From: a virus
IMG/VR virus record: IMGVR_UViG_3300010354_000284
Location: 1 to 34,551 of that record
Length of the DNA stretch: 34,551 bases
Reading direction: 5' to 3' (one strand)
Shown here: one piece after another, positions 170 through 34,551 of the stretch
Position numbering within the stretch: the first letter of the stretch is position 1
Layout of the letters: every line of letters starts with the position of its first letter
Translations under genes and position numbers: made by a program
Notes under the pieces: generated by a model
Databases searched by the model: none
Told to the model about the DNA's origin: nothing
What the model saw: only the letters and a program-made list of their open reading frames with translations

Positions 170-1593
170 ATATAACCGTAGTTGGCGGCGGTACTGCCGG
201 ATGGCTTGCCGCTTATCTTTTTTTAAAATCGCAGCCTGGTAGGCATAATGTTACGGTAATAGAAAGCACATCTATCGGTATTATTGGTGCCGGTGAAGGT
301 TCTACTGGTTTTTTTACTGATGTTCTAAATGGACATTTTTCAAAAAGCGTGATCGACATTGACGATTTCGTATCGCAATGTGATGCCACTAATAAAATTG
401 GTATTAAATTTAAAAACTGGAATGGTGATGCCACAGAATTCTTTTCTCCGTTAGACGGTAGTCCGTCTGGAGGTGTTAGTAATGACTTTATTTTTAAATA
501 TGTTTTAGCCAAGTACGGAAGATACAAATCACATCTAGCTTCTAAAATTGGTTTAGATTACGAACTACGTAGAAACTGGCATCGTTATAATTCTTTACAT
601 TTCAACGCTCACAAAGTAGGACAATATTTTAAGAACATTTGTTTGCAAACAGGAATAACATATCACGACTCTGTTGTTCAGGAAGTCAATTTGAACAATG
701 AAACAGGATATATTGATTCAATTACACTAGAAACAGGACAAAAAGTTTTTGGAGACTTGTTTATTGATTGTACAGGATTCAACCGTGTGCTAATGAAAGC
801 ATTGGGTGTCAAGTGGCAGGATTGGTCAAATTACTTGCCAGTGAATACTGCTATGCCATTTCTTTTAGATTACACAGAGAATGATAAAATAAATCAGGGT
901 CCTTGGACAACTGCCACAGCATTGAATTCTGGATGGATGTGGGATATTCCTTTACAGACTAGACGTGGATGCGGATACGTTTATAATAAAAACTTTATTA
1001 CAAGAGAAGAAGCAAAAAGAGAAGTTGAGAGTCTTTTAGGCAGAGAAATAAATCCTATTAAATTTATTGACTTTATTCCTGGAAGAGCAGAAAGTCTATG
1101 GCAAAAAAATGCGTTGTCTTTAGGTCTTGCGTCTTGTTTTGTTGAACCTTTACAAGCAACATCTATACACACAACAGTTGCACAGCTAGTTATGTTTGTG
1201 TCAGAATTTTTAACTGAAGACAAAACATCTGTGTGCGCTCAGTCAAACATAGATGCCTACAATCGAAGAGCTTCTACATTATACGATTACAATTTAGACT
1301 TTGTATCAATGCATTATCAAGGTGGGCGTAGTGACACAGCATTTTGGCGTCATATTAAAGACAACAAAATCGTATCACCATATGCTGCTGATGTGATCGA
1401 AAGATCTAAAAGAAGATTAGTAAGTTTCCATGATATGGGTCCTATGTTTGGATCACCTGCCATTGGATTATGGAATTGGACCATGGCTGGGTTGGGAATT
1501 ATAACACCCGAACAGGCAAAATATGATCTAGATCTATCGGGAATATTTGATCAGGCAGAAACACAATATCTTCAATTTGTATCGCAAAATTAA
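166..1593 (+). CDS. Flavin-dependent tryptophan halogenase-like protein
   Basis: The 475-residue product has the flavin-dependent halogenase layout. There is an FAD-binding GGGTAG at residues 7-12, a DCTGF flavin motif at 201-205, and the halogenase signature WMWDIP at 257-262 (family WxWxIP). Lys77, in CDATNKIGIKF, sits where PrnA has its catalytic lysine. The family uses FADH2, O2 and halide to make HOCl/HOBr that halogenates tryptophan or another aromatic. In the EPLxxTS block (327-333) residue 330 is Gln where PrnA-type enzymes have a catalytic Glu, so the substrate or activity may differ. Length is a little under the usual 500-540. A flavin reductase is not seen nearby. The start overlaps the stop of the DsbA-like gene. 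The family call is firm and the substrate unknown. Confidence 0.88.
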   Translation: MNITVVGGGTAGWLAAYLFLKSQPGRHNVTVIESTSIGIIGAGEGSTGFFTDVLNGHFSKSVIDIDDFVSQCDATNKIGIKFKNWNGDATEFFSPLDGSPSGGVSNDFIFKYVLAKYGRYKSHLASKIGLDYELRRNWHRYNSLHFNAHKVGQYFKNICLQTGITYHDSVVQEVNLNNETGYIDSITLETGQKVFGDLFIDCTGFNRVLMKALGVKWQDWSNYLPVNTAMPFLLDYTENDKINQGPWTTATALNSGWMWDIPLQTRRGCGYVYNKNFITREEAKREVESLLGREINPIKFIDFIPGRAESLWQKNALSLGLASCFVEPLQATSIHTTVAQLVMFVSEFLTEDKTSVCAQSNIDAYNRRASTLYDYNLDFVSMHYQGGRSDTAFWRHIKDNKIVSPYAADVIERSKRRLVSFHDMGPMFGSPAIGLWNWTMAGLGIITPEQAKYDLDLSGIFDQAETQYLQFVSQN

Positions 1594-12987: not shown

Positions 12988-13446
12988 ATGATTCTTAAAT
13001 TCTTAGAAAAGATTGGAAGAAAGCGAATCATTTTAGATAGGCAAAGTAACGATCCTTATCTAGAAAGATACTATGTATTTCTTAAAGATCGTAAATGGTT
13101 TCCTTTTAACATTTTTGTTCATAAGTTTTTGAAAAGCGATCCAGACGATGTTCATGATCATCCCTGGCCATACGCAACCTTAATCCTCAAGGGTGGTTAT
13201 TATGAATGGGTACCACAATTTAACTCCACAGGACAAAAAATTGGAGAGCTCAGGCACTGGCGTGGCGCTGGTCATTTCCGCGTTTGTACTGCTGATTCTT
13301 TTCATCGTATAGAATTAGATCCAAATGTAGAATGTTGGACTTGTTTTATGCCTGGTCCTCAACGTAAAGAATGGGGATTCCTTGTGAACAATAAATGGAT
13401 ACATAACGAGCAATATATCAAGGAAAGGGCAGTGACACATGGATAA
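12988..13446 (+). CDS. Cupin-fold metal-binding protein
   Basis: The 152-residue product contains VHDHPWPYATLILKGGYYEW, which fits the first cupin motif (two His, then a Gly-rich turn), and later ADSFHRIEL, which provides the second-motif His. These would place a metal site in a small beta barrel. The family includes dioxygenases, sugar epimerases and binding proteins. Related single-domain cupins occur in many marine phages without known function. The start is one base after the deformylase stop and the end overlaps the next gene by eight bases. Confidence 0.7.
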   Translation: MILKFLEKIGRKRIILDRQSNDPYLERYYVFLKDRKWFPFNIFVHKFLKSDPDDVHDHPWPYATLILKGGYYEWVPQFNSTGQKIGELRHWRGAGHFRVCTADSFHRIELDPNVECWTCFMPGPQRKEWGFLVNNKWIHNEQYIKERAVTHG

Positions 13447-21352: not shown

Positions 21353-21377
21353 TATAAATATTACTTTACTATTTAAA
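21353..21377. promoter_or_regulatory. Divergent late-promoter-like octamers
   Basis: In the 40-base gap between divergent genes, TATAAATA at 21353-21360 on the plus strand is a perfect T4 late octamer. It lies 22 bases before the ATG at 21383. TATTTAAA at 21370-21377 reads TTTAAATA on the minus strand, seven of eight bases, and lies 27 bases before the dehydrogenase start at 21342. Together they could drive both genes late in infection. Confidence 0.55.
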
Positions 21378-21382
21378 ACAGC

Positions 21383-22630
21383 ATGATCAAAATACAAGCA
21401 GAGTTGACTGAAAATCCCTACATACGAAATGATATTCTGACTACCCAATTTACCATGCTTGTAGATGATGCGATGTCTAAACATCCTTCATTGAAAACAT
21501 TAACGCAATTAGAATACATCCATGGTTTCATAAAATATCCGCATTGGAATTCTGATGCTGATTTGTTTTGCAACATAGATCAACACAATCTTAAAAGGTT
21601 ACAGAATGAAGAGATTTTCTTCATCCTAGATGCAAGTGTTGAAGGTTATAGTCCAATACATCAAATACCGTTTTTTGATATTCTACATCATAATTGCGAC
21701 AAATATAATGTAAATCCAGAACGTGTTATATTTGTCAGCGCCAATCTGTTAGATGAACAAAATTACGAACGATATTCAAAATCAAAAAATAAAAAATTAA
21801 AAATTTTTAGTTTTAATTTTTTTGAAAAGGTAGCTGAGGCCCCATTAGAATGGCGAAGTTTGATTGAAAATGGTGAGGACATTTTACCTCAGGTTACATT
21901 ACAACGTGTAAAACAAGAAGTAGAAAATAATTTTGTTGATAAGTTTTTTTCAAGTCTAAGCCGATTAAACAGATATCAACGCACTATTGCAACATTTCTT
22001 CTTTCTCAACACCCTGTAAGTAAACATGCACTTATAAGTCATAACAAACTTAAATTAGATAGACCGGATATTTGGCTTCAAGTAGCTGGCTTAGAAAAAT
22101 ACGGCATTGAAAACTTGTTGCAATGGTTAGATTCTCTACCGTTAGTAGTTGATCATAATGATTTTGAAACTAATTGGGCTATTCAAACACCTTATGCACA
22201 CATACATCATAGAACCTTGTTTCAAATAGTGAACGAAACGTATCAATCTGATTTTAATGGTACATCGTTGTTCTACAGCGAAAAAACTTTTCGCCCTATG
22301 ATTTGTATGCAACCTTTTATAATTTACGGACAACCAGGCAGTAACAAATATCTTAAAAATCTAGGATACATTACATATGATGATTATTTTGATTTGTCAT
22401 TTGATGATGAGCCCAACGATACTGTAAGATATCAAATGATCCTACATGTGGTATCAACGCTATGTAAGAAACTTGAATCTATGTCTAGGCAAGAACAGAT
22501 TAAGTGGCGGTTTCAACGAGAAGATGTGCTCCTGCATAATTTTCAAATAATGAGAGAAACTGCGTTAACAAAAAACAAAGTGATTGCATTTTTAACTAAA
22601 GAAATTTATGGAACAACTAATACACACTAA
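21383..22630 (+). CDS. Glycosyltransferase-like protein with SEKTFRP motif
   Basis: The 415-residue product contains QIVNETYQ (281-288) followed by YSEKTFRPMICMQPFIIYGQ (298-317) and LKNLGYITYDDYFD (324-337). The E-x-x-x-x-x-EKTF-P pattern followed by a hydrophobic strand and small-residue turn is shared by fucosyltransferase-like and other GT-B enzymes, where it lines the nucleotide-sugar site. A gene two positions downstream shows the same pattern. The acceptor and sugar are unknown. No Shine-Dalgarno is evident; a perfect late octamer lies just upstream. Its end overlaps the SGNH-like gene. Confidence 0.55.
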   Translation: MIKIQAELTENPYIRNDILTTQFTMLVDDAMSKHPSLKTLTQLEYIHGFIKYPHWNSDADLFCNIDQHNLKRLQNEEIFFILDASVEGYSPIHQIPFFDILHHNCDKYNVNPERVIFVSANLLDEQNYERYSKSKNKKLKIFSFNFFEKVAEAPLEWRSLIENGEDILPQVTLQRVKQEVENNFVDKFFSSLSRLNRYQRTIATFLLSQHPVSKHALISHNKLKLDRPDIWLQVAGLEKYGIENLLQWLDSLPLVVDHNDFETNWAIQTPYAHIHHRTLFQIVNETYQSDFNGTSLFYSEKTFRPMICMQPFIIYGQPGSNKYLKNLGYITYDDYFDLSFDDEPNDTVRYQMILHVVSTLCKKLESMSRQEQIKWRFQREDVLLHNFQIMRETALTKNKVIAFLTKEIYGTTNTH

Positions 22631-23477
22631 ACCTAAACGCTTGTTTGCTTTTGGATGCAGTTTTACAAAATATTTTTGGACATCTTGGCCTGAATTAGTA
22701 GCAGATGCCTTAGACATTCCTTTTTATAACTTTGGGCGTTCGGGAGCCGGTAACCAATATATAGCTAATGTATTAATGCAAACCGATAAACAATATAAGA
22801 TAACACAAGACGACATGGTAATTATTTCGTGGACTAATGTATGTAGAGAAGATCGATGGGCTAAGGGTACTTGGTTACTTACAGGAAACGTCTACAGTCA
22901 AGGTATCTATGATGATGTATTTGTAGACAAATTTGCAGACCCAGTTGGATACTACATTAGAGATCTAGCCACTATGAATTTAGTTAAGACGTTCCTAGAT
23001 CATAAAGAATGTCAATATAAATTTCTTAGCATGTGTAACATTTTAGAAAGACAAGATCAAGGTGAGGATTATAACCTTATAGAAGAAAAATATATGTCTA
23101 TGTACACTCATGTTGCAAACTTATATAAAGACATTACTGATATGGTGTTGCCAAGTTTTTATGAAGTCTTGTGGGAGGACAATATTCATAAAAACAAATT
23201 TGATATTGAAAGGCAAACACTTTCCCCTTTATTTTTAGATGGACACCCTAGTCCAATTGAACATTGGAAATATTTAAAAGCTGTATTTGATTATCCATGG
23301 CCGGCTAGTACTGAAGAAAAAGCCTTAATTGCACAAGAAAATTATGTAAAGATTATTAAAGATATGGCTGCTGAATACAAGAAACCATTTTCAATCTACG
23401 ATAGGCCAAAAGAAATATTAGACAATCTAAGAGAAAAAACTCTTGTCAAGCAATCGTTGCCTGTAAGACATATCTGA
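22608..23477 (+). CDS. SGNH/GDSL hydrolase-like protein
   Basis: The 289-residue product fits the SGNH fold: block I FAFGCSFTKYF with Ser18, block II NFGRSGAGNQYI with the oxyanion Gly, ISWTNVCRED with Asn77 for block III, and LDGHPSPIEHW with Asp211 and His213 for block V. These hydrolases act as esterases or, in sugar contexts, as acetyltransferase partners or deacetylases. Its position between two glycosyltransferase-like genes suggests that it trims or acetylates a glycan. It overlaps the upstream gene by 23 bases and its stop shares one base with the next start. Confidence 0.7.
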   Translation: MEQLIHTKPKRLFAFGCSFTKYFWTSWPELVADALDIPFYNFGRSGAGNQYIANVLMQTDKQYKITQDDMVIISWTNVCREDRWAKGTWLLTGNVYSQGIYDDVFVDKFADPVGYYIRDLATMNLVKTFLDHKECQYKFLSMCNILERQDQGEDYNLIEEKYMSMYTHVANLYKDITDMVLPSFYEVLWEDNIHKNKFDIERQTLSPLFLDGHPSPIEHWKYLKAVFDYPWPASTEEKALIAQENYVKIIKDMAAEYKKPFSIYDRPKEILDNLREKTLVKQSLPVRHI

Positions 23478-24589
23478 TGAAAATACATAAGTTATCTGAT
23501 ATTAACCCTTTGATGAATTCGCATCATAGCCATTTTTTATCATTTGACATTGAATACGATACCTGGGTCCCAACTAATGATTTATCTGCCTGTGATATTA
23601 TTCCGCTTCTTGTTCCTTATAGCGATGACGAAATAATTAAACAATGTAATTTTATCATGTCCAACGGATATAAAGGTCAACCACTATTAGCCATTGATCT
23701 GTTTCATGCCGATGATCAAGTTGACGACAAGAAAAGATATTCTTTGTTTAAAAATACGTGCAAGAATTATCTTACAGATAAAATTGCAGTTGTTCACACA
23801 AATAGAGAAAATGATACAGACATTTTTTATGATTTTCTTTGGAACCGACAAAAGGCGTATTTTACTGATTACAACAAATTTAACATGGACGACAGAGTTT
23901 GGACATGGGGTTCAAATATTAAAATGTTTGGCCTAACTAAGATATTTAAATTTCCTGATTGTAGGATTTTCCTCTGTCCTAATAGAATACAAATTGTTGA
24001 CGGTCAGATGGCAAAACATCATCGGTTTACCTGTAGAAGTAACCTAGCTGAATTTTTAAAAGATCAAAATGGTTTTATCAGTGATCCAGCGAATGACATA
24101 ATTTTAGATCCCGAGCAGACGGAAATTAGAAATTCCTTATTAGGAGGAAGGAGTGGTACTTGGTATCCTGTTGCTAATCATTTATACAATTCGTCATTCG
24201 TATCTATATACATCGAAACTATTACAATGACCAGCAGCATGGGATTCAAATATAAGACTATTACAGAAAAGACTTGGGATCCACTTATTAAGGGACATTT
24301 TATATTACCGTTTGGTTATATGGGATTAGTTGAAGATATTAAGTCTTACGGATTCTGGTTGCCAGAATGGATAGATTATTCTTACGATCAAATATACGAC
24401 GATAATGCAAGATTTGAAGCTTACCTAAAATCAATTGATAAGCTTCTAGTAAACGACATTAATTTTTTTAGAAAAGAATTTGAAAGATCTATAGATAAAT
24501 TATATCAAAATAGAATGTTGTTTTGGCAACGGCCTTACGATAATCTATACAGTAAAGTTAAAAATTATTTTAACATTGAACAATCGTAG
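23477..24589 (+). CDS. Glycosyltransferase-like protein with TEKTWDP motif
   Basis: The 370-residue product has an Asp-rich N-terminal half. Its C-terminal domain contains SIYIETITM (243-251), TITEKTWDPLIKGHFILPFG (261-280) and IKSYGFWLPEWIDYSYD just beyond. The order E, EKTxxP, hydrophobic strand, GF..P matches the 415-residue protein upstream, so the two appear to be distant paralogues. Enzymes with this motif use nucleotide sugars. Its end overlaps the end of the converging radical SAM gene by 25 bases. Substrate unknown. Confidence 0.5.
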   Translation: MKIHKLSDINPLMNSHHSHFLSFDIEYDTWVPTNDLSACDIIPLLVPYSDDEIIKQCNFIMSNGYKGQPLLAIDLFHADDQVDDKKRYSLFKNTCKNYLTDKIAVVHTNRENDTDIFYDFLWNRQKAYFTDYNKFNMDDRVWTWGSNIKMFGLTKIFKFPDCRIFLCPNRIQIVDGQMAKHHRFTCRSNLAEFLKDQNGFISDPANDIILDPEQTEIRNSLLGGRSGTWYPVANHLYNSSFVSIYIETITMTSSMGFKYKTITEKTWDPLIKGHFILPFGYMGLVEDIKSYGFWLPEWIDYSYDQIYDDNARFEAYLKSIDKLLVNDINFFRKEFERSIDKLYQNRMLFWQRPYDNLYSKVKNYFNIEQS

Positions 24590-25935
24590 TAAAATTTTTC
24601 GTATTCTGGAAAAGTTTCTAAAAAATTAGTTCCGCGTCTACGATCATATTCGTTAAACCAATTAAAGAAATCCTTACGTCCTTCTACAATTTTGGCTGTT
24701 GAATATTCTGTAGTCTCCATGTATTTGACTACACGACTAAATTTGTCTACTTCTTCTTGACTAAATTTAGTGTTGTCATTTTCATTACAATTGTCTTGCA
24801 TAAATTTTAATGAATCATTCATGTAATTCATAAACTCTTCTTTAGGAAGAATATTCATGTCGTATTGTAAAGGTTCTTTTAAATGCGGTGTATCAAATCC
24901 AATTCTACGGTACCGTTGGTCAGTTGAAGTATGATACTTACTTCTCCATTCTAAAATCTTTTTAAGTAATTCAGTAAAACTTGTAACTGTTAAGATATTA
25001 AATGTAATCATAAAAGTTACAGGAGCAGAAGTTTTTGTCATGTATTGATCAAAGTTTCTTTCCCAAATTTCTAAATCTAGTCCAGTTCTAATGTACTCGG
25101 CTTTAGGTCCCCATGTATCAATGCTAGTAAACAACTTGAACTCTCTAATTTTATTATGAGTTGTTAGATGATTTACGTGATTAACAAACCTCTCTATGAT
25201 AATAGGCTTAGACCCTAAATTACTGTTTAGATTTAATCCTAACTTAGGCATAGGAGTTTCTGTCAGACTTTCAAACAACCGCCATGTACTTTTTTGAAGC
25301 AAAGGCTCGCCGCCAGTTATTCTCAAAATATGCAAAGTTTTACTAACTTCTGGCCACCAACGCCACCAGGCGTCTAGATACGGATTGTCTTCTTCTTCAT
25401 AGATTGTAAACCAATTAATATCATTCCTATGGTTCTTTACCATAGTGTAAGGGCCATAATCTTTTATTTCTTTATAATAACTTGAACTATATTTTGGATG
25501 ACAATAACCGCATTTGAAATTACATTCGTTACCAAAACTTATTTCAATGTATTCAGGATTTATATTATAATTATGATCTGCGCTGGCAACTTCTTCGTAA
25601 CGATCATCTGTGAAAATATTCTCGTTTCTATGATGCCTATCTGATCTGTATTCGGGTCCCATCGCTTCAATTTTCCAACAATAATCACAACCAGAAGGCT
25701 TTTCTCCTTCCAACATCATGCGTCTTTGCTGTTTTTTCTCAGATGTATTATGTAATGCACTAGGATTATTTCTTAATTCTTCTAATTTAATTTCATGAGG
25801 CGGAGGATGATAGCAACTATGTGTTTGGCCTAATTGCAAATAAATTGTAGAATGATGCCATTTTGCAAAACAAAATGTAGGGCTTATTCTATCTAACAAA
25901 CCTTTTCTGTAAAACTTTAATTCTTTTTCATCCAT
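24565..25935 (-). CDS. Twitch-domain radical SAM protein
   Basis: The 456-residue product has a radical SAM core with CNFKCGYC (Cys138, 142, 145) and RITGGEPLL (205-213). An N-terminal region contains further Cys at 22, 41, 83 and 86 (FCFAKW, CYHPPPHE, GCDYCW), as in proteins with an auxiliary cluster (twitch/SPASM-like). Such enzymes modify peptides or small molecules by radical chemistry. I choose the ATG at 25935 over a TTG at 25947; it overlaps the upstream gene by eight bases. It is the last gene of a minus-strand operon of glycosyltransferases, so a role in making an unusual sugar or modified protein is inferred. Confidence 0.82.
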   Translation of the reverse strand: MDEKELKFYRKGLLDRISPTFCFAKWHHSTIYLQLGQTHSCYHPPPHEIKLEELRNNPSALHNTSEKKQQRRMMLEGEKPSGCDYCWKIEAMGPEYRSDRHHRNENIFTDDRYEEVASADHNYNINPEYIEISFGNECNFKCGYCHPKYSSSYYKEIKDYGPYTMVKNHRNDINWFTIYEEEDNPYLDAWWRWWPEVSKTLHILRITGGEPLLQKSTWRLFESLTETPMPKLGLNLNSNLGSKPIIIERFVNHVNHLTTHNKIREFKLFTSIDTWGPKAEYIRTGLDLEIWERNFDQYMTKTSAPVTFMITFNILTVTSFTELLKKILEWRSKYHTSTDQRYRRIGFDTPHLKEPLQYDMNILPKEEFMNYMNDSLKFMQDNCNENDNTKFSQEEVDKFSRVVKYMETTEYSTAKIVEGRKDFFNWFNEYDRRRGTNFLETFPEYEKFYYDCSMLK

Positions 25936-27283
25936 AAGATTTGTCAAACATTCTTTTTAACCATTCAAAATCGTTAATTTTTTTCAACGCTTCAAGGTCG
26001 TCTTTATTTTTTTCACCGTATTCACAGCCTGCTTTAGCACCTGCTATTGCACAGTCACCGTAGGGTCTATCTAAGCCTACGGTGCACCATGTATCTAAAC
26101 GAGACATAGTTTCTTCATTTTTTTGTCTATCAATAACCTTACTTGACAATTTACAGCATTCTCTAAACGCACTTTTCCATGTATTAAACGGATCGGTGTT
26201 GAATCCAGTTACATTAGATAAAGTGTGTACCGCCTTAAATTTACTAGAAATACTAGTAGTCATATCTGGTTTTGACACATCCATGTTCAGTGTTAAATCA
26301 GTTGGTAAAAGTTTTACACCGCCGTATCCGTAGACTAAATCGTTGACAGGATTTTTACTACGCCACACATGTACGATGTCTCTCTCATAGCTTGACACTT
26401 CATGATCAAAATAAAAGTCTTTTACAATTTCTGCATCGCCGTCGACCACCCAAAACATAGTAGTATTAACTAACTTGGCTGCTTCAATATGTGCTTGATG
26501 GATGCCTTTTATCCCGTGTACTCTTTTAGCTCTAGGAAATCTTTTTCTTAAATTTTTAAAATTATCATCTGCGTTTGGTTCATTGTAACTTATGAACACA
26601 ATATCATAAGGTGCGACCATACTGGCTACTTCTTTGTATTGTTTTTTATCAACTAAAAATCTATGCTTGATTTCTTTTTGCGTTAATGTGATGTCTTTAG
26701 GAATTAGAGATATTCCAGTATATGTTTCCTCTCCCCGAAAAATATGTTTAAAAACATGATTGCTTTTTTTATCTACAACATTATGAGAGGGAAAATAATG
26801 ATTAAACTTAAACGTTGGATTTACTTCAACTTCTTTAGGAACGAAATAGAATAACTCAGTATAACATTTTTCTTTGGCAGAAAGATATTCTTCGTATGTA
26901 TCAATTACAAAACGTTCGTAGGCCTTTGGTGCTGATGCAACAATATCAATTTCTTTTTTATTTGTAAAAAATCTGTATGTGAATTCTTTATTTGTTATTT
27001 CATGTTGTTTATTGAAAATGTTTATACCGTCAAAATGATCACCATTTTTAAATACATGTACGTATGATTCGTCCCATTTAGGTACTACATAATCTAACAA
27101 AAAATTATCTCTAATAACTAAATCATCCCATACTACCCAAAATAGCTTGGTGAAAGATTTAGATTTTAGTTGATCAAAATTTTCAACGTGTTCAATTAAT
27201 CGAGCAGTTGGAAACTTTTTAGAAAAATTAAGCCAACTTTGCGGATCAACAGAACCCCTTGAAACGTATAATATATCGTACAT
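25928..27283 (-). CDS. Multi-module glycosyltransferase-like protein
   Basis: The 451-residue product has a C-terminal domain (226-430) that resembles the protein encoded by the next gene upstream in the operon. It has YDIVFISYNEPNADDNF, then FPRAKRVHGIKG, then WVVDGDAEIV with the DxD-like Asp281-Gly-Asp283. The N-terminal half repeats parts of it: residues 1-119 and 145-224 share the pattern xHVFKxxx...G..........KEF.xRF.....xxxVAS. The copy at 49-54 (WVVWDD) lacks the DGD. I read this as duplicated and partly degenerate modules. The likely activity is a GT-A type transfer; substrate unknown. Confidence 0.6.
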   Translation of the reverse strand: MYDILYVSRGSVDPQSWLNFSKKFPTARLIEHVENFDQLKSKSFTKLFWVVWDDLVIRDNFLLDYVVPKWDESYVHVFKNGDHFDGINIFNKQHEITNKEFTYRFFTNKKEIDIVASAPKAYERFVIDTYEEYLSAKEKCYTELFYFVPKEVEVNPTFKFNHYFPSHNVVDKKSNHVFKHIFRGEETYTGISLIPKDITLTQKEIKHRFLVDKKQYKEVASMVAPYDIVFISYNEPNADDNFKNLRKRFPRAKRVHGIKGIHQAHIEAAKLVNTTMFWVVDGDAEIVKDFYFDHEVSSYERDIVHVWRSKNPVNDLVYGYGGVKLLPTDLTLNMDVSKPDMTTSISSKFKAVHTLSNVTGFNTDPFNTWKSAFRECCKLSSKVIDRQKNEETMSRLDTWCTVGLDRPYGDCAIAGAKAGCEYGEKNKDDLEALKKINDFEWLKRMFDKSYG

Positions 27284-28185
27284 TATCTATCTCTACTATA
27301 GTATGTGTTACACAAATTAATTGTTTCTTGATAAAGGTCGTAGGTGTACCTACTTTGTTCTATATTAAGATAAGGATAATTAAATCCTATGTCTTGATGT
27401 AGTCTTGTACCTAATTGTTTAATTTCTTCTACCAACATATCTTGATCATTTTCAAATTTTTTGACCTGATCATTATAGATGTCTCGTAGTATTTCAAAAT
27501 CTCTAACATCTACATAACTCCAATCAGTGCAATTAGTCATGTAATTTCCCATCCTAGCACCAAGTATAGCAAATAATCCATGCTGGACATGTGAACCAAT
27601 AGTTGACCAAATTTTTAATCTATGAAGGTTGTGCCACCAAACACGTTCTTGTATTTCGTGTCTGGGAACTTTGACGCCATCTGCAAGAGTCATCTTTACG
27701 CCTTCACGAAATCCTGCACGCCAGGCTTGGAATGAGCTTCCATTTATATGTACATCACTATAACAAGTCATAAACTGCCGATAACCGTTTTCCCAACAAA
27801 AATCTACCTGAGCACGTTCGCTGTCACTGGCTTCATGTGTTTTCATATTAAGTATGAAATCTTTACGCCAAATTTTTAATCCGCCGTTACCATATTGAAG
27901 GCCGTTGATATTATTGCGTCCTAGCCAGCTGTAGACATCAATAGCATCATTACTGAAGTCTAAATCTAAATTAAAAAATTTATTATCAACAATATTATCA
28001 GCATCAACAGTAATTACCCAATCAGTTTCACTTTGACGAGCGGCTTCTTTATGTGCTTCGTCGCTGCCTTTGACTCCGTGAACACGTTTAGCCCAAGGTA
28101 CTTTGTTACAGAGATCTGCAAAATGCAAATCTGCATTTGGTTCATCGTAGCTTAAAAAAACTACGTCAAATTCAATAACTCTCAT
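27283..28185 (-). CDS. GT-A type glycosyltransferase-like protein
   Basis: The 300-residue product starts FDVVFLSYDEPNADLHFADL and has VHGVKGSDEAHKEAAR and WVITVDADNIVDNKF, with a DAD at 61-63 that would bind a metal and nucleotide-sugar. A Trp/His-rich region with SFQAWRAGFREGVKM and SRYTYDLY follows. It is a paralogue of the C-terminal domain of its downstream neighbour. The start overlaps the end of the upstream gene by four bases and the end touches the next gene by one base, so it is translated as part of the operon. Confidence 0.65.
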   Translation of the reverse strand: MRVIEFDVVFLSYDEPNADLHFADLCNKVPWAKRVHGVKGSDEAHKEAARQSETDWVITVDADNIVDNKFFNLDLDFSNDAIDVYSWLGRNNINGLQYGNGGLKIWRKDFILNMKTHEASDSERAQVDFCWENGYRQFMTCYSDVHINGSSFQAWRAGFREGVKMTLADGVKVPRHEIQERVWWHNLHRLKIWSTIGSHVQHGLFAILGARMGNYMTNCTDWSYVDVRDFEILRDIYNDQVKKFENDQDMLVEEIKQLGTRLHQDIGFNYPYLNIEQSRYTYDLYQETINLCNTYYSRDR

Positions 28186-28772
28186 GTTTCAATTAGTAGA
28201 TATTTTTTAAATAGTCGTCTTGTAAAAATACTGAATCTTTTTTCTTCTCCGGTATAAATTACCGTTTGCGGGAACTCTTTTAGATCATCAAGTTTAATTA
28301 CAACATTCTGTATTACATGGTAAGGATCGTTATATGCTGTTACTAAAAATTGTGCGTTTGTTTCATCGGTCCAAAGTATTTTTTTAGTTTTTAAACTTTC
28401 GCTCATTGTGAATGTTATACTTCTTGCAGTATGATTATAAACTATTGTAATATCAGGATTATCAATAGTAACATATTTGTTACTTGGTATTCTATGAACA
28501 ATGTCGTCAATTTTTCTTAATCCGTATCTTTCAATAATTTCAATTGTTTCAGAGTCTGTATCAACAAAACAAGTATTCATCCTTATGACACCGTTCATGA
28601 TGTCTTCGGCCATCTCTCTATCAATTTTAATCTTGTACTGTTGTTCCTGAGCAGCTGAATCAGGATAAATTCCTACTATCTCACCTGTTTCATGATTATA
28701 GATTGCCCAATAAGAAAGTTCTGGAGGAGTGTAATTTTCAATCCAGGTGTCAAAGTCTGTTACTTCTTCCAT
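28182..28772 (-). CDS. Hypothetical protein, possible beta-rich virion or accessory protein
   Basis: The 196-residue product starts MEEVTDFDTWIENYTPPELS. It has SYWAIYNHETGEIVGIYP, a pattern also seen at the start of phage tail-fibre associated proteins, then alternating strands (IDNPDITIVYNHTARSITFT, SIFTRRLFKKYLLIE). I recognise no enzyme motif. It overlaps both neighbouring genes of the minus-strand operon, by 4 and 13 bases. It may bind a glycan or interact with the transferases, but that is a guess. Confidence 0.5.
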   Translation of the reverse strand: MEEVTDFDTWIENYTPPELSYWAIYNHETGEIVGIYPDSAAQEQQYKIKIDREMAEDIMNGVIRMNTCFVDTDSETIEIIERYGLRKIDDIVHRIPSNKYVTIDNPDITIVYNHTARSITFTMSESLKTKKILWTDETNAQFLVTAYNDPYHVIQNVVIKLDDLKEFPQTVIYTGEEKRFSIFTRRLFKKYLLIET

Positions 28773-29599
28773 GCTATTTCTTCCAATATGCTAACAGTTT
28801 CATCAGTTACAAAAGTTTTTTCGTTGTAATGAACTATGTCGTGTTGTTGAAAATTTCCAATTTTTAATTTTGCGTTCAAATCAAAATAAAATCCAACGTG
28901 GTCACTGACTGTACTAGCTGGCCAAGGCCAATTTTGTATCATAGGTTTTAAATGTACTACCTTTGGAAATTCTAAATCAAAGGCTATCTCGTCATGAATA
29001 TCTAAAATTTTAGCTGCTAATGCAAATGCTTCATCGGTTCCAATAATCTTGGGCTTATATCCTTTTAGGAACAAATTTTTAAACTCTGTGGGATTTTTAA
29101 TAATGTATCTACCAAGTTCAAAAAACTCTTTGGCCAACACTGAATCCTTCTTAAAAAAAGTATAAAACGAATATAAGTTGGGTAGTTCATTGTGAGTAAA
29201 TGCTTTTCTATAATAATCATCTGTTACAACTTCACCTCTATATGTATAAGATTTTGGTGTTACATATAGTTCTGTATTTTCAATGAAATAATCTACCCAA
29301 TGACTGTAATCTCTAAAAAATAACATATCAGCATCTAAGCAGATAGTTTGATCCCACGGACTAAGCTCGTCCATAAAAGATCTACCATCCCAATGTTTTT
29401 CTTTATCCCATTTAATTACTCTATCAAACACCCAGGGACTTTTTATCTTTTTTACAGATTGCACATCGTCAGTAATTAAGGCTACCTTATCGTAACCTTC
29501 ACGCTGTGTATTTTTAATACTCAAAGCTAAAGCATATGCTAGTTTTAAATAATCAACTTCATCGTTTTTAGAAATAATTATTAGATATCCAAAGTTCAT
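28760..29599 (-). CDS. GT8-like glycosyltransferase
   Basis: The 279-residue product starts NFGYLIIISKNDEVDYLKLA. It has LALSIKNTQREGYDKVALIT and then ICLDADMLFFRDYS with the DAD at 89-91, the metal-binding motif of GT8-type transferases. A His at DHVGFYFDLNAK and later a HDIVHYNEKTF segment may complete the metal site. The family uses UDP-sugars. A close relative lies immediately upstream in the operon. Overlap with neighbours is 13 and 4 bases. Confidence 0.7.
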   Translation of the reverse strand: MNFGYLIIISKNDEVDYLKLAYALALSIKNTQREGYDKVALITDDVQSVKKIKSPWVFDRVIKWDKEKHWDGRSFMDELSPWDQTICLDADMLFFRDYSHWVDYFIENTELYVTPKSYTYRGEVVTDDYYRKAFTHNELPNLYSFYTFFKKDSVLAKEFFELGRYIIKNPTEFKNLFLKGYKPKIIGTDEAFALAAKILDIHDEIAFDLEFPKVVHLKPMIQNWPWPASTVSDHVGFYFDLNAKLKIGNFQQHDIVHYNEKTFVTDETVSILEEIAWKK

Positions 29600-30456
29600 A
29601 TTAGACTCATAAATTCTTTAGCGTGTCGAACAATTGATTGCTTGTTCATTACGTGTATATCTCTTTTAGAAATAGTAGTAGCAACTACATTATCTTCAGA
29701 CATGTCATCATTAATTAACAATTTAATTTTATTATCCATTACTTCATAGATAACATCTTTACCAGACGCTGTTAATACAGGAGGAAGATAGTTGTAATCG
29801 CTGTGTTCAAATCCATCTAACATATGCAAAGCAATGCTAAATGCTATATCGTTTCGATAAATGTTAGGATTAAATCTAAACAGGTCTGCATAATTTGCAT
29901 AGTTGTCTTTGATATATTCAACTAAGTTAAAAACAAGTTTAGTTTTTTTATTTTTTGTAAACATCACCGTTGTGGCCCAGCACAACGGAATTCCTGTTTC
30001 AGAAACATGTTTATCTAAAACACCTATACGATCACCTCTAATATCATTCATACTAGGTGCTATCATAAAATCGCTATCAGCGTCCCAATACTCACTAAGA
30101 TTAGTTGACTGCACTAGATAATCTGAATCAATTAATAATGTTCTTTCGTAAGGTGTAATATCCCAAGCAGATGACCTATTCAAATTTACAAAAGGCACCA
30201 TTTTTGAAGTATAGGCATCTACAAGTAAACGCTGATTTGACGTTACGGGTTTTTTAACCTCAATAATTTTATCAAAGACTGTTTTAGCCTTAGAGATGGT
30301 TTTAGAAATCTTCATCCATTCTAGTGTAGATTCGTCAGTAACTAGAGATACAGGAACTTGTAAATTTTTTTTAGCTAAGCCACCAGCAACTATTGCCATT
30401 AGGGCATAATCAACTTGCCTGCTATTGTGTGCGAAAATTAAGACACCTTTGTTCAT
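29596..30456 (-). CDS. GT8-like glycosyltransferase
   Basis: The 286-residue product starts NKGVLIFAHNSRQVDYALMA and contains LLIDSDYLV with a DSD at 110-112, so it resembles the neighbouring GT8-like protein in layout. A region with GIPLCWATTVMFTKNKKTK and RNDIAFSIALHML follows where GT8 proteins bind the acceptor. It would act on an unknown acceptor. Its start overlaps the end of the upstream gene by four bases. The two GT8-like copies probably arose by duplication. Confidence 0.68.
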   Translation of the reverse strand: MNKGVLIFAHNSRQVDYALMAIVAGGLAKKNLQVPVSLVTDESTLEWMKISKTISKAKTVFDKIIEVKKPVTSNQRLLVDAYTSKMVPFVNLNRSSAWDITPYERTLLIDSDYLVQSTNLSEYWDADSDFMIAPSMNDIRGDRIGVLDKHVSETGIPLCWATTVMFTKNKKTKLVFNLVEYIKDNYANYADLFRFNPNIYRNDIAFSIALHMLDGFEHSDYNYLPPVLTASGKDVIYEVMDNKIKLLINDDMSEDNVVATTISKRDIHVMNKQSIVRHAKEFMSLI

Positions 30457-30803
30457 AGGTCCAATAGTTTCTCAACAGTCCTACTTTTCTTAACCTGTTC
30501 ATACTCTTTCATGTATTCAAAACTGGCAGAAAAATATCTATCAAAAATTTCATCACGGAATTTTTTTAGATCATCGATAAGAATTGGATTATCGTTTGAA
30601 TCAATCAAAGGTACATTAGATGTACGTTCTTGGTCAATGCACATTTGCACGAATGTAATTAGAGTCATATCAATATAAAATATGCCTCCGTTATAACCAA
30701 AAGTTAATTGGGCTTGCAATTTTTCTTTTAATTGCTTGCGTTGTATAGAAAGAGTTTGTCTGTATTTTGAAAAGTCTAAGGCTTTTTTTAGGCGATCATC
30801 CAT
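30453..30803 (-). CDS. Conserved marine T4-like phage protein
   Basis: The ATG at 30803 has GAGG six bases upstream, so I prefer it to the TTG at 30815. The 116-residue product is helical and basic (LKKALDFSKYRQTLSIQRKQ), with a hydrophobic middle (GGIFYIDMTLITFVQMCIDQ) and a charged C-terminal helix. From memory similar proteins lie near fibre genes of cyanophages. It opens the minus-strand glycosyltransferase operon just downstream of a perfect late octamer. It may be a fibre assembly factor, but this is not shown. Confidence 0.6.
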   Translation of the reverse strand: MDDRLKKALDFSKYRQTLSIQRKQLKEKLQAQLTFGYNGGIFYIDMTLITFVQMCIDQERTSNVPLIDSNDNPILIDDLKKFRDEIFDRYFSASFEYMKEYEQVKKSRTVEKLLDL

Positions 30804-30831: not shown

Positions 30832-30839
30832 TATTTATA
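30832..30839 (-). promoter_or_regulatory. Perfect late promoter octamer for the glycosyltransferase operon
   Basis: TATTTATA at 30832-30839 reads TATAAATA on the minus strand, an exact T4 late octamer. It lies 28 bases before the ATG at 30803 and in the gap after the last fibre gene. It could drive the whole minus-strand run down to 24565, timing it with virion assembly. Confidence 0.65.
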
Positions 30840-30861: not shown

Positions 30862-31803
30862 TTATGAACCAGTAATTGAACCTACTGTATATGTAGGGCT
30901 TGTGATTGTAAATGTACCAGATGGTACCAAAGAACCTGTTGCTTTTTTCTCTGTAACTGTGATTGTAAACACACCGTCAACACCTTCATTAGTTCTTGGA
31001 CTATCTTCTGGTGTATCACCTGGATCAACATAAGCATCGGTCATCACTACTTTTAAATTTACAATGCTAGCTGTGCCGCCTGAATTATCTGCTACATTAC
31101 ACTTAGCTTGTAATACATAAGAGTTAGATGCATACGGTGCAGAACTGGCCAATGAATAATAATTTTGATACACATTAGTTAATCTATAAAAATTTTGTCC
31201 GTTCATTGGACTAAAACCGCTTGTAGGTGTTTGACTTCCAAAAGATCTCATTCCTGCGGTAGATAATAATGTTGTCCAATCATTGTTCTGTGCATTATTT
31301 GTTCCGCCGCTGCGTGAACTCTGGATTCGTATTTCACCGCCACTATTGAAAAACCATCTTGCTTGATCAGCATTGGTAAATGTAGCTGTAATTTCGCATT
31401 GAATAGCAACTAACCAATACTGAGGAACAGTTGATCCACTCCATGTTCTTGTTTGACTAGTAGCGGCCTGTGTTAAAAATCTTCCGGATCCAACATTGAA
31501 TCTATTTGTAGTGGCTGTATTGGCAATGCTGGTATAGTTCGTATTGTTAGTAAAGGATATTAACTGGCCTTCTTCAATATCAGTAATTACAGGTGCCGAA
31601 CCATCCTGATGTGTTCTAGCATTTACGATATCGTACCGTAAATTATCCCAATCTGTTTGACTAACTTTATCGTGATCAGCCTTGTATGCGCTGGACATTG
31701 TCTGTCCATAACCGTATGTACCAGATCCTGTGCCGTAAACAGGTAGAATAATACTTCTTATCGTATTATAATCTACTGTTAAAACTTTATCATGCTCGGC
31801 CAT
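30862..31803 (-). CDS. Virion fibre-like structural protein
   Basis: The 313-residue product starts AEHDKVLTVDYNTIRSIILP and has GTGSGTYGYGQTM and WDNLRYDIVNARTHQDG, then ARWFFNSGGEIRI. These are the same blocks found in the next gene, so they are paralogues. The Gly/Ser/Thr-rich beta pattern and repeated Trp are typical of phage fibre or virion proteins, as seen in cyanophages. It ends TYTVGSITGS. AGGAG (31815-31819) lies 11 bases upstream of the ATG. It probably forms part of the tail-fibre apparatus; the exact position in the virion is unknown. Confidence 0.75.
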   Translation of the reverse strand: MAEHDKVLTVDYNTIRSIILPVYGTGSGTYGYGQTMSSAYKADHDKVSQTDWDNLRYDIVNARTHQDGSAPVITDIEEGQLISFTNNTNYTSIANTATTNRFNVGSGRFLTQAATSQTRTWSGSTVPQYWLVAIQCEITATFTNADQARWFFNSGGEIRIQSSRSGGTNNAQNNDWTTLLSTAGMRSFGSQTPTSGFSPMNGQNFYRLTNVYQNYYSLASSAPYASNSYVLQAKCNVADNSGGTASIVNLKVVMTDAYVDPGDTPEDSPRTNEGVDGVFTITVTEKKATGSLVPSGTFTITSPTYTVGSITGS

Positions 31804-31830: not shown

Positions 31831-31838
31831 TATTTATA
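31831..31838 (-). promoter_or_regulatory. Perfect late promoter octamer
   Basis: TATTTATA at 31831-31838 reads TATAAATA on the minus strand, an exact T4 late octamer. It lies 27 bases before the start of the fibre-like gene at 31803, in the 41-base gap between the two paralogues. Both sites on this strand occur in gaps just before late-type genes. Confidence 0.65.
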
Positions 31839-31844
31839 AGGTGC

Positions 31845-32753
31845 TTATGAACCAGATATAGCAGTTATGGAATAACCGGGTCTCTGAATCGTAAATGCAC
31901 CTGTCCCTACAGGTTGTAAGATTCCAGATGCTCTTTGTTCATCTACCTGTACTGTCAAAGTACCATCAACTAAGTCTGGAAAAAATGAAGGCGTTCTAAA
32001 CGCTGTATAAGCATCAGTGAAATTCCATTGTATTAAAATTTGTGTTGCACCACCTAAGCTATTATCAGCTACATCGCAAGCAGCCCTAACTTGATAAACG
32101 TTTCCGGTGTAGTATTGAGAACTGCCAGTTCCTGTATAAATTGTAGTGTATGAATTTGTCAAATTCCAAAAATTCAATGATGACGAAACTGCACCAATAG
32201 TTAATATTCCAGCTGTATCTAAAATGCTAGACCAAGAACTATTTTGCAAAGATGCACTACCACCTGTTCTGTTTGCACTGATTCTCAATCGGCCTCCGCT
32301 GTTAAAAAACCACCGTGCTCTATCAGACGAACTAAAAGTAATAGTAGCCACTGCTGTTAAACTATTTTGCCAACTTGTACTTCTAGTTTGACTTGTTCCG
32401 GAATCTACAACGAATTGACCTGTACCGACATTAAATTTATTAGATATTGCGGTATCGGCTTGAATACTGTATTGCGTATTTGGATGGCCTGCACCATATC
32501 TAATAGGTTGTCCTTGAACGGCAGTAACAATAGTAGGGGATACACCGTCTTGGTGTATTCGAGCATTCAAGATATCATATCTTAAAGCATCCCATTGTAC
32601 TTTTGTAACTTGGTTACCTGTTGAAACAGCTGAACTTAGTAAAGTTTGTCCATAACCAGACTGGCCAGAACCGGCTCCCATAATTGCTATTATTTTATTT
32701 CTAATAGCATTATAATCAACTGCCTCAATTATTGAACCTGTACCTGCGGCCAT
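31845..32753 (-). CDS. Virion fibre-like structural protein, paralogue of its neighbour
   Basis: The 302-residue product shares its order of blocks with the 313-residue protein: VDYNAIRNKIIAIMGAGSG, SGYGQTLLSSAV, WDALRYDILNARIHQDG, RARWFFNSGGRLRI and a final YSITAISGS. That identity over the whole length indicates a tandem gene duplication. An AAGGA lies six bases before the ATG. It follows the large fibre gene after nine bases, so those two are probably co-transcribed. The role is likely structural and the target unknown. Confidence 0.75.
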   Translation of the reverse strand: MAAGTGSIIEAVDYNAIRNKIIAIMGAGSGQSGYGQTLLSSAVSTGNQVTKVQWDALRYDILNARIHQDGVSPTIVTAVQGQPIRYGAGHPNTQYSIQADTAISNKFNVGTGQFVVDSGTSQTRSTSWQNSLTAVATITFSSSDRARWFFNSGGRLRISANRTGGSASLQNSSWSSILDTAGILTIGAVSSSLNFWNLTNSYTTIYTGTGSSQYYTGNVYQVRAACDVADNSLGGATQILIQWNFTDAYTAFRTPSFFPDLVDGTLTVQVDEQRASGILQPVGTGAFTIQRPGYSITAISGS

Positions 32754-32762
32754 TTTATATCC

Positions 32763-34532
32763 TTAGAGTATTACAGCTTCAACTAATTTAATATCAGTAC
32801 TATCATTGCTTTCTAAAGCAATTGCAAATACATCATTAGCATGGGGTACTGCTGCTACTGCACACCCATTATTAGCTGCTACTAGTCTTTGACCTTTTCT
32901 AACTACTCCTGTTACCTTCACTGGTACACGTCCTTTTAATGCGACATATACACCACCTACCAAATCCATATTCATTCTAAATGCTGGATTTTCGCTTATA
33001 ACACCTATAGCTCTATCTCCGTAAGAGCTGGCTGTAATTTCTTTGTCACCACCAACAACCATTACTGTACCTACATCATATTCAGCATCTGGCAAATACT
33101 TTTCTGCAAGGTCAGCATATCTTGCGCTGGTAGCAGTACCATTTAAGACGTTACAAAAAATATCACCGCTAGCATCTCTAGCAACAATAGTACTCGCTGT
33201 GCCTGTAGTTTTTGCTGATCTAAAGTTAGGATCTGTGTCAACTGCGGCATTGTCTATCTTTAATCTTACAGCCTGCGTGGCTGTACCAATAAACGACGTA
33301 GCAGTTAAGGCACCAACTCCGTCTCTTAGAGCAACTGTATCAGCAAATGCACTAGTATCAGCTGGATCGCCATTAAGTGTAGTAGCATTGGTAGCTGTAC
33401 CGTTTAAACTTCCAACGAATACCGCAGTACCAGGTGTAGTGCCAGCAGTTACTACAGTAACTCCTGTTGACGAAATCACGTTGCCAATTAGATTTCCTGT
33501 AACATTACCTGTTACGTTACCAGTTAAGTTTCCTGTAACATTACCTGTTACGTTACCTACTAATGCACCTCTGAATGTAACTGCATAGACATTAGCCCAT
33601 CTTGCACCGTTTAGGCCGCAATCAAGTAGATTATTTGTTCCTGGATAGAAAGCATTTTGATTGAAAACATAATCTCTATCTCCACCACTATCAACAATTC
33701 TTAGGGTTAAATTTTGAGAACCGCTTGATCCTAGTTGATTTGAAAGAATAGGTTGATCACCGTTTTCAATGTAAAATCTTATATCATCGGAATCACCTAG
33801 TGTATAACCAACATCGTAAAACTTTGCTCCGTTTGGAAACAAAGGATTAGTATTTCTAATGAATTCGCTGGCAAGATATCCGCCCAATCTTAAAGAATTT
33901 GAAGCGGTTCCCCACCAATAATGGTCATCTGTAGTTACACCAGTCGCTGGCGTATTAATTAGAGTGAACCCTTTATGAATTTCACTAAATCCTGGAATAG
34001 GATTAACAGATCCATTTAGAGTAAAATTTGTTTTACTTGCTATAACCTGGCAATCAGAGCCAACGTTGAATTTAATAACTGTATGGTTAACGTTTAATAT
34101 GTCCTTGACAACCACTACCTCTACTGCGGTCGCTCCTAGATCTTCTACTAGTTCTGGACCAACTAATACAAAACTAGTCCCGTTCCATACAAACAATTGA
34201 TCAGTGGTGCTATCTAGCCAAAAATCACCTGCACTTAATCCAGAAGGCGGTGTTGGCCCAACTTCTGAACCGCCCGAAGTACGAAATCTTGACCCGTCAA
34301 AAAATTTAATTTTCTTGTTTGTAACATCGTACCAAATTTGACCGTTTAGGGCCTTTGGCGGTGGTGCGGTATTAGCAAAATTCTCTAATAAATGAACAAA
34401 ATTTTCGTTCTGAACTTCACCGTAACCAGCGTAATTTTTGCCTAATAAACGTAGATCGGTAGTAGTATCAATGGTACCGTCTTCTACTGAGACTAAAAAT
34501 GTTCCATTATATCTGTCTACTTGATATGCCAT
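32763..34532 (-). CDS. Large tail-fibre-like virion protein
   Basis: The 589-residue product starts at the ATG of 34532, with GGAG seven bases upstream; a TTG at 34535 is too close to that site. Its N-terminus (VDRYNGTFLVSVEDGTIDTT, GQIWYDVTNKKIKFFDG) fits marine T4-like fibre proteins. The middle has several GDFWLDSTTDQLFVWNG-type repeats. Residues about 325-352 are a run of GNVT/GNLT tetrapeptide repeats, and the C-terminal domain begins near RYADLAEKYLPDAEYDVGTV. The protein probably forms a trimeric fibre for host recognition. The gene is complete, 19 bases inside the window's right edge. Confidence 0.82.
   Translation of the reverse strand: MAYQVDRYNGTFLVSVEDGTIDTTTDLRLLGKNYAGYGEVQNENFVHLLENFANTAPPPKALNGQIWYDVTNKKIKFFDGSRFRTSGGSEVGPTPPSGLSAGDFWLDSTTDQLFVWNGTSFVLVGPELVEDLGATAVEVVVVKDILNVNHTVIKFNVGSDCQVIASKTNFTLNGSVNPIPGFSEIHKGFTLINTPATGVTTDDHYWWGTASNSLRLGGYLASEFIRNTNPLFPNGAKFYDVGYTLGDSDDIRFYIENGDQPILSNQLGSSGSQNLTLRIVDSGGDRDYVFNQNAFYPGTNNLLDCGLNGARWANVYAVTFRGALVGNVTGNVTGNLTGNVTGNVTGNLIGNVISSTGVTVVTAGTTPGTAVFVGSLNGTATNATTLNGDPADTSAFADTVALRDGVGALTATSFIGTATQAVRLKIDNAAVDTDPNFRSAKTTGTASTIVARDASGDIFCNVLNGTATSARYADLAEKYLPDAEYDVGTVMVVGGDKEITASSYGDRAIGVISENPAFRMNMDLVGGVYVALKGRVPVKVTGVVRKGQRLVAANNGCAVAAVPHANDVFAIALESNDSTDIKLVEAVIL
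33493..33557 (-). repeat. Tandem repeat coding GNVTGN units in the fibre gene
   Basis: A 29-base sequence at 33493-33521 is repeated exactly at 33529-33557, 36 bases apart. It lies within a longer run of 12-base units encoding GNVT or GNLT (about 33478-33562). Such runs form extended beta or collagen-like shaft segments and can change length by slippage. Confidence 0.85.
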
Positions 34533-34551
34533 CAATACACTCCAAATTTAT

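What the first reader, a model, noticed from the sequence alone, without database searches (positions are those of the whole stretch)
24565..30803. Late minus-strand operon of glycosyltransferases and a radical SAM enzyme next to fibre genes
Seven overlapping genes follow a perfect late octamer (30832-30839): a small conserved gene, two GT8-like, one unknown, two related GT-A-like proteins and a twitch-type radical SAM protein. Timing with virion genes and location beside fibres suggest that the products decorate fibres or other virion proteins, perhaps with a radical-made sugar or modification.
Basis: partly seen in the sequence, partly recalled or inferred. Interest (0 to 1): 0.6.

Follow-up and report, generated by a model that had tools for sequence, protein, structure and literature searches.

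The report
Phage tail-fibre glycosylation and radical-SAM operon
In a large, never-cultured group of T4-like viruses of bacteria, the genes for the tail fibres are consistently followed by a fixed set of sugar-transferring enzymes and usually by one to six radical-chemistry enzymes, which suggests that these viruses decorate their fibres with unusual sugars.

Summary
Seven overlapping minus-strand genes (24565-30803) follow a T4-type late octamer, 28 nt before the first ATG. Two are GT8-like; a third (GTA2) models as GT-A fold and its relative GTA1 is homologous to it; all four keep DxD motifs. The last is an N-terminal-twitch radical SAM enzyme (NCBIfam NF033640, E 3e-97).

New here: fibre-small-GT8a-GT8b-(unknown)-GTA1 is a fixed block in uncultivated phages. 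Among loci found through GTA1 alone, both GT8 genes and a fibre gene lie upstream in 32/32 close and 69/69 divergent cases. These genes co-diverge with the fibre, and the late motif precedes fibre and first operon gene but not internal genes. Radical SAM genes form a variable downstream array (0-6 copies) and do not co-diverge.

This favours fibre glycosylation, with radical SAM enzymes as exchangeable tailoring. Nothing tested shows the acceptor. Host-surface modification, the published reading for pelagimyophage cassettes, stays a real rival: bacterial relatives sit beside polysaccharide-export genes and a distant Vibrio phage cluster near PagP. PqqD beside the enzyme in one bacterial clade raises the alternative that it acts on a polypeptide. 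No relative of the operon proteins searched was found in 50,697 phage records.

The parts
30832..30839 (-). T4-type late promoter octamer TATAAATA of the operon
   Evidence: exact match, 28 nt before the ATG of 'small'; motif conserved upstream of 'small' in relatives; T4/KVP40 late consensus per PMC2984593
30453..30803 (-). 'small', 116 aa, conserved, directly behind the fibre gene; possible fibre chaperone (inference)
   Evidence: found in all evaluable close loci and 67/69 divergent loci with the GT core; no Pfam match; no match in cultured phages
29596..30456 (-). GT8a, GT8-like glycosyltransferase, 286 aa
   Evidence: Pfam GT8 E 0.0015; D110xD112 and H268..K272 conserved; weak glycogenin profile hit E 0.055
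28760..29599 (-). GT8b, GT8-like glycosyltransferase, 279 aa
   Evidence: profile hits glycogenin E 7e-6; D89xD91 and H257..K261 conserved
28182..28772 (-). unknown, 196 aa, C-terminal beta-sandwich
   Evidence: AlphaFold2 pLDDT 83; no PDB match E<=0.001; three BFVD matches E<=0.001, two named as uncharacterised phage proteins and one without a name
27283..28185 (-). GTA1, GT-A-like glycosyltransferase, 300 aa
   Evidence: homologous to the GTA2 catalytic domain (hhalign prob 100, E 4e-53); D61xD63; weak GT2 Pfam hits
25928..27283 (-). GTA2, GT-A glycosyltransferase, 451 aa: two degenerate N-terminal GT modules plus a C-terminal catalytic domain with D281xD283
   Evidence: AlphaFold2 pLDDT 92.7, Foldseek E 3.5e-7 to chondroitin polymerase; repeat units vs catalytic domain hhalign prob 97.7
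24565..25935 (-). N-terminal-twitch radical SAM enzyme, 456 aa
   Evidence: NF033640 E 3.4e-97; C138xxxC142xxC145 and C22, C41, C83, C86 conserved at 97-100% across 139 relatives
30862..31803 (-). fibre2, candidate acceptor; Ser/Thr-rich C-terminus
   Evidence: own late octamer at 31831; C-termini of the fibreS family 33% S/T against 11% in other proteins
31831..31838 (-). T4-type late promoter octamer TATAAATA of the fibre2 gene
   Evidence: exact match, 27 nt before ATG
31845..32753 (-). fibre1, paralogue of fibre2, candidate acceptor
   Evidence: synteny upstream of the operon in relatives
32763..34535 (-). fibreL, long fibre/structural protein
   Evidence: PHROG tail fiber and virion structural matches; weak Peptidase_G2 domain
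21353..24589 (+). convergent cluster with its own late octamer: 21383 (unknown, family recurs in the variable part of related loci), SGNH-like 22608, 23477 (unknown)
   Evidence: octamer 22 nt before ATG 21383; homologues downstream of rSAM genes in related loci

Best explanation
The operon is the modifying half of a fibre module. It is transcribed late, like the fibre genes. The two GT8-like enzymes and GTA1 (with GTA2) build a short glycan on the fibre protein encoded just upstream, probably as O-linked sugar on its Ser/Thr-rich C-terminal part, while the fibre is still in the cytoplasm. The 'small' protein may hold or present the fibre. The twitch radical SAM enzyme, and in relatives a whole array of radical SAM, B12-radical SAM, SGNH and carbamoyltransferase genes, tailors the sugars or their nucleotide precursors. 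The tailoring set is swapped between phages. Shown: gene content, folds and motifs of the enzymes named, late-promoter pattern, fixed synteny, co-divergence of fibre and GTs, variable number of rSAM genes. Inferred: late transcription itself, acceptor, linkage, order of steps, and what the radical SAM enzyme does.
For: Ascertained by GTA1 only, all 32 close loci and all 69 divergent loci with enough upstream sequence carry a fibre gene and both GT8 genes directly upstream, at identities down to about 40%. Pairwise distances of fibreS, small, GT8a, GT8b and GTA1 correlate at rho 0.62-0.85. A late motif lies before fibre genes and 'small' but not before internal genes. No operon protein has a hydrophobic segment typical of a membrane protein (maximum 19-residue Kyte-Doolittle mean 1.46), so the set can act on a cytosolic protein. 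GT8b resembles glycogenin, a protein glucosyltransferase. Best structural matches of GTA2 include protein glycosyltransferases: LH3, ppGalNAc-T, SunS. rSAM keeps all seven cluster cysteines. Precedent for virion glycosylation: mycobacteriophage capsid and tail-tube C-termini, as cited in PMC12619734.
Against: No acceptor, glycan or transcript has been observed. GTA2's structural matches also include polysaccharide and lipid-linked transferases (K4CP, RmlT, ArnC, GtrB). GTA and rSAM homologues occur together in Bdellovibrionota contigs without fibre genes (L122, L126, L135). Bacterial rSAM relatives lie near O-antigen-type ABC exporters and carbamoyltransferases. A distant rSAM cluster in Vibrio phage K566 lies near PagP. 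Co-divergence and synteny show co-inheritance, not biochemistry.
Confidence: 0.58

Rival explanations
1. The enzymes alter the host's surface glycan late in infection, for example to stop superinfection or to free progeny from receptor-bearing debris, and lie beside fibre genes because fibre and receptor evolve together.
For: Published reading of GT8-rich, radical-SAM-containing host-recognition clusters in pelagimyophages (PMC7029224); bacterial rSAM relatives beside polysaccharide ABC exporters and carbamoyltransferases; K566 rSAM cluster near PagP.
Against: No membrane protein, flippase or polyprenyl-phosphate transferase recognised among the operon genes (and annotation); the GT block is tied to fibre genes in every evaluable locus, whereas the published LPS-type genes are described as also scattered in small clusters elsewhere in the genome.
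Confidence: 0.22
2. Fibres are glycosylated by the GTs, but the radical SAM enzyme acts on a polypeptide (fibre or a small peptide), as RiPP maturases do: epimerisation, crosslink or C-C/C-S bond. This shares the fibre part with the main explanation and differs in the radical SAM step.
For: In seven Bacteriovoracia/Bdellovibrio loci of one rSAM clade a PqqD protein (a peptide-presenting partner) lies within 3.5 kb of the rSAM gene, and in five of these a Peptidase_S74 fibre-chaperone-type protein; twitch/SPASM enzymes commonly act on peptides (established knowledge; see reviews listed).
Against: No PqqD in any viral locus; the PqqD link is confined to one rSAM clade; the same bacterial loci also hold glycan-export genes; rSAM does not co-diverge with the fibre.
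Confidence: 0.16
3. The glycosyltransferases and radical SAM enzyme hypermodify phage DNA.
For: Phage glycosyltransferases hypermodify DNA elsewhere (cited in PMC12619734), and radical SAM enzymes take part in some thymidine hypermodifications (own knowledge).
Against: Fibre-linked late promoter rather than replication-gene context; no hydroxymethyl-pyrimidine enzyme recognised among the genes examined; window genes for FolE and QueE point, if anything, to 7-deazaguanine chemistry; matches are to GT8 and GT2-type folds, not to T4 DNA glucosyltransferases.
Confidence: 0.04

Closest known systems
Pelagimyophage host-recognition cluster (PMC7029224)
   Same: Hypervariable region beside tail fibres with several glycosyltransferases, GT8 being the commonest family, and gene cassettes with radical SAM proteins
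   Different: The paper describes the island as non-syntenic and reads the GTs as host O-chain modification; it does not describe the fixed fibre-small-GT8a-GT8b-X-GTA1 block in the passages read. Homology of its proteins to this operon was not tested directly
T4-like environmental viral genome with 12 radical SAM genes, TARA_ERS488813_N000010 (PMC5332604)
   Same: T4-like uncultured virus with a large set of radical SAM genes
   Different: Discussed as Fe-S metabolism; no link to fibres or glycosyltransferases in the passage read
Virion glycosylation in mycobacteriophages (Freeman et al. 2023, as cited in PMC12619734)
   Same: Phage virion proteins carry glycans, at C-termini of capsid and tail-tube subunits
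   Different: Different phages and acceptors, no radical SAM enzyme mentioned; original paper not held here
N_Twi_rSAM family NF033640 in Bdellovibrionota
   Same: Same enzyme family, up to 54% identity, in some genomes beside GTA-type glycosyltransferases
   Different: Chromosomal, no GT8 pair, no 'small' gene, no tail fibres next door; function unknown

Membership tests
N_Twi_rSAM (NCBIfam NF033640) | Score above curated cut-off over the full model | tested here: met
   326 bits against 170, model 1-398 of 398
N_Twi_rSAM (NCBIfam NF033640) | CxxxCxxC radical SAM motif and auxiliary-cluster cysteines in the N-terminal part | tested here: met
   C138, C142, C145 and C22, C41, C83, C86 conserved at 97-100%
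N_Twi_rSAM (NCBIfam NF033640) | Binds clusters and cleaves SAM | not testable with these tools
   needs biochemistry
Glycosyltransferase family GT8 (GT8a, GT8b) | Profile match to the family | tested here: inconclusive
   GT8a Pfam E 0.0015 and below cut-off; GT8b profile to glycogenin E 7e-6 but no Pfam hit
Glycosyltransferase family GT8 (GT8a, GT8b) | DxD metal motif and C-terminal His/Lys signature | tested here: met
   conserved at 90% or more
GT-A fold glycosyltransferase (GTA1, GTA2) | GT-A fold with DxD | tested here: met
   GTA2 model pLDDT 92.7, Foldseek E 3.5e-7, D281xD283; GTA1 by homology only, hhalign prob 100
T4-type late transcription unit | TATAAATA octamer 20-40 nt before the first gene, shared with virion genes | tested here: met
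   consensus from PMC2984593
T4-type late transcription unit | Observed late transcript | not testable with these tools
   no expression data
Phage virion-protein glycosylation system | Glycosyltransferases genetically tied to structural genes | tested here: met
   101 of 101 evaluable loci, a few of them near-copies
Phage virion-protein glycosylation system | Glycan on a virion protein | not testable with these tools
   no virion available; no cultured relative found
RiPP-type radical SAM maturase | PqqD/RRE protein near the enzyme | tested here: not met
   no PqqD homologue in viral loci
RiPP-type radical SAM maturase | Precursor peptide gene near the enzyme | not tested
   small reading frames were not screened systematically

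The most novel reading that the evidence does not exclude
A very widespread group of uncultivated T4-like phages, and possibly predatory bacteria, use exchangeable radical SAM enzymes to diversify the chemistry of glycans (or peptides) on their adhesive fibres, so that fibre decoration varies between phages while the core glycosylation machinery stays fixed.
Probability: 0.4. Interest if true: 0.82.

Novelty: new variant of a known kind. Interest (0 to 1): 0.62.

Why it matters
Glycosylation of phage virion proteins is known in few systems, and I found no report of radical SAM enzymes as part of it. It also gives a defined gene set to test, and a possible shared toolkit between phages and predatory bacteria.

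Tried and rejected
tblastn of rSAM, GTA1, GT8b, 'small' and a divergent GTA1 against 50,697 phage records: no match; only a tandem rSAM paralogue finds distant (about 23%) Vibrio phage proteins. PDB sequence profiles for GTA1 and the unknown gene gave nothing useful. Fold searches of the unknown gene against PDB and BFVD gave no function. The family of gene 21383 looks glycosyltransferase-like by eye but profiles found nothing useful in PDB or Pfam. I considered assigning the host to Bdellovibrionota because cellular rSAM relatives cluster there, but rejected it as unproven: well-supported branches force at least eight virus/bacterium changes in the rSAM tree, and contigs with the whole phage module turned up in MAGs labelled Rhodobacteraceae, Pelagibacter and Neomarinimicrobiota. 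DNA hypermodification was considered and given low weight.
Full report
What is in the window. The minus strand from 30803 to 24565 holds seven open genes that overlap one another by 1-13 bp. They follow TATAAATA at 30832-30839, 28 nt before the first ATG. The octamer occurs only three times in the window. The other two copies lie 27 nt before the fibre2 gene and 22 nt before a plus-strand gene at 21383, which opens a second cluster that converges on the operon. T4 and KVP40 use TATAAATA and cyanophage S-PM2 uses NATAAATA as late promoter (PMC2984593). The reversed octamer also occurs three times, so it is the position and not the number that counts.

The proteins. The last gene is an N-terminal-twitch radical SAM enzyme (NF033640, 326 bits against a cut-off of 170). 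Three cysteines of the radical SAM cluster and four N-terminal cysteines are conserved in essentially all of 139 relatives and tandem paralogues. I infer one auxiliary [4Fe-4S] cluster from the four. GT8a and GT8b are divergent GT8-like proteins: Pfam E 0.0015 for the first, glycogenin profile E 7e-6 for the second, with conserved DxD and C-terminal His/Lys. GTA1 and GTA2 are homologous to each other (hhalign E 4e-53). The GTA2 model is confident (pLDDT 92.7) and has a GT-A fold by Foldseek. GTA1 itself was not modelled. The fourth gene remains unknown.

A side finding is that GTA2 begins with repeat units of about 100 residues, and homologues fall into length classes near 225, 350, 451, 550 and 660 residues, that is 0 to 4 units. 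The units are degenerate copies of the DxD half of its own catalytic domain (hhalign prob 97.7, E 1.6e-12; unrelated families gave under 1%).

Is it a unit? The first set of related contigs was found through the radical SAM gene and is therefore biased. I therefore searched IMG/VR with GTA1 alone. In the 80 closest loci, all 32 with enough upstream sequence have fibreL, fibreS, small, GT8a, GT8b and the unknown gene before GTA1, and all 34 with enough downstream sequence have GTA2 and rSAM after it. With a divergent GTA1 as query, all 69 evaluable loci have fibreS and both GT8 genes upstream and 67 have 'small', but only 49 of 59 have a recognisable rSAM within seven genes downstream. Counting eight downstream genes in 127 loci of all three searches, the number of rSAM genes runs from 0 (11 loci) to 6 (4 loci). 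These are the best-scoring 80 of at least 596 and 597 relatives in the two GTA1 searches, so remote relatives without fibres could have been missed.

Co-divergence. Over 143 distinct loci, pairwise distances of fibreS, small, GT8a, GT8b and GTA1 correlate at 0.62-0.85, but those of the first rSAM gene correlate with them at only 0.25-0.29. Choosing the first of several paralogues lowers the latter figure, so part of the drop may be an artefact; loci without rSAM show the exchangeability independently. The late motif lies before 54% of 'small', 54% of fibreL and 39% of fibreS genes, and before internal genes at about background rate.

Cellular relatives. With NF033640, 39 of 119 genomes of the class of G001 (a Bdellovibrionaceae MAG) pass the cut-off, against 1 of 142 for the class of G125 (a Pelagibacterales MAG, the one hit being that MAG itself) and 6 of 149 for the class of G128 (a Flavobacteriales MAG) (class names are inferred from record titles). 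Nine genomes chosen because they held a hit carry 6 to 32 matches. L084 and L085, at 53-54% identity, sit among ordinary cellular genes. The tree needs ten changes between virus and bacterium, of which well-supported branches force eight. In one bacterial clade the gene lies beside PqqD (Pfam E 2.8e-11) and a Peptidase_S74 protein; in others beside ABC exporters, GT4-like proteins and carbamoyltransferases; in L126 the order GTA1-GTA2-other-rSAM resembles the phage order. GT8a, GT8b and 'small' were found in bacterial collections only on contigs that also carry the phage fibres. S74 domains are chaperones of phage-like fibres in Bdellovibrio (PMC10769870), which makes the fibre link suggestive, but the S74 proteins here are short and their role is unknown.

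Interpretation. The simplest account is a late fibre-glycosylation module with a fixed core and a swapped set of tailoring enzymes. The step from fibre-linked genes to fibre-linked sugar is an inference. FibreS C-termini are rich in Ser/Thr (33% in the last 20 residues, 24% in the rest of the protein, 11% in other proteins), which fits O-glycosylation but does not show it. Host-surface modification remains the main rival because it is the published reading for comparable marine clusters (PMC7029224) and because rSAM relatives elsewhere sit beside surface-polysaccharide or lipid A genes. The peptide-acting rival for rSAM rests on the PqqD neighbours. DNA modification is unlikely.

The phage. 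The window's DNA polymerase is about 50% identical to those of Sinorhizobium phage Phosso and Agrobacterium phage Atu_ph07, both near 470-490 kb, so the window is a fragment of a T4-like, perhaps very large, phage; related contigs reach 518 kb. The host is not known.

Novelty. GT8 and radical SAM cassettes beside tail fibres, and radical SAM-rich T4-like genomes, have been reported (PMC7029224; PMC5332604). I found no report of the fixed fibre-GT block, of its co-divergence, or of the exchangeable radical SAM array in the open-access library searched; subscription papers and preprints were not covered. I therefore call it a new variant of a known kind, phage virion glycosylation being the kind it most likely works like; membership cannot be tested without a virion.

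Noticed in passing
window 25928-27283: GTA2 carries degenerate copies of the DxD half of its own catalytic domain; homologues have 0 to 4 copies in steps of about 100 residues.
   Followed up: partly
window 166-1593: Tryptophan halogenase family protein (Pfam E 4e-91; PHROG 2928) in the phage window.
   Followed up: no
window 21353-24589: Plus-strand cluster with its own late octamer, an SGNH-like protein and two unknown proteins; its last gene overlaps the end of the rSAM gene by 25 bp. The 21383 family recurs in the variable part of related loci.
   Followed up: partly
L105, L110, L113, L114, L115, L117, L120: Twitch radical SAM gene beside PqqD, and in five of these loci a Peptidase_S74 protein, in Bacteriovoracia/Bdellovibrio contigs.
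   Followed up: partly
G005, G007, G008, G009: Genomes of Bdellovibrionota with 20 to 32 matches to the N_Twi_rSAM family; many clustered, e.g. a dozen or more on one contig of G007.
   Followed up: no
L011:11328-13781, L031:11346-13823, L108:9971-12475: Fusions of two radical SAM enzymes in one reading frame, viral and bacterial.
   Followed up: no
L028:14154-16394 and its family f27: B12-binding radical SAM protein in the variable array of several phage loci.
   Followed up: no
L324:13962-24424 (Vibrio phage K566): Cluster of radical SAM genes near PagP in a phage record; distant relatives (about 23%) occur in KVP40-like phages, a possible laboratory model.
   Followed up: partly
window 12988-13446: PHROG match to cysteine dioxygenase (E 1.5e-35), no Pfam match.
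   Followed up: no
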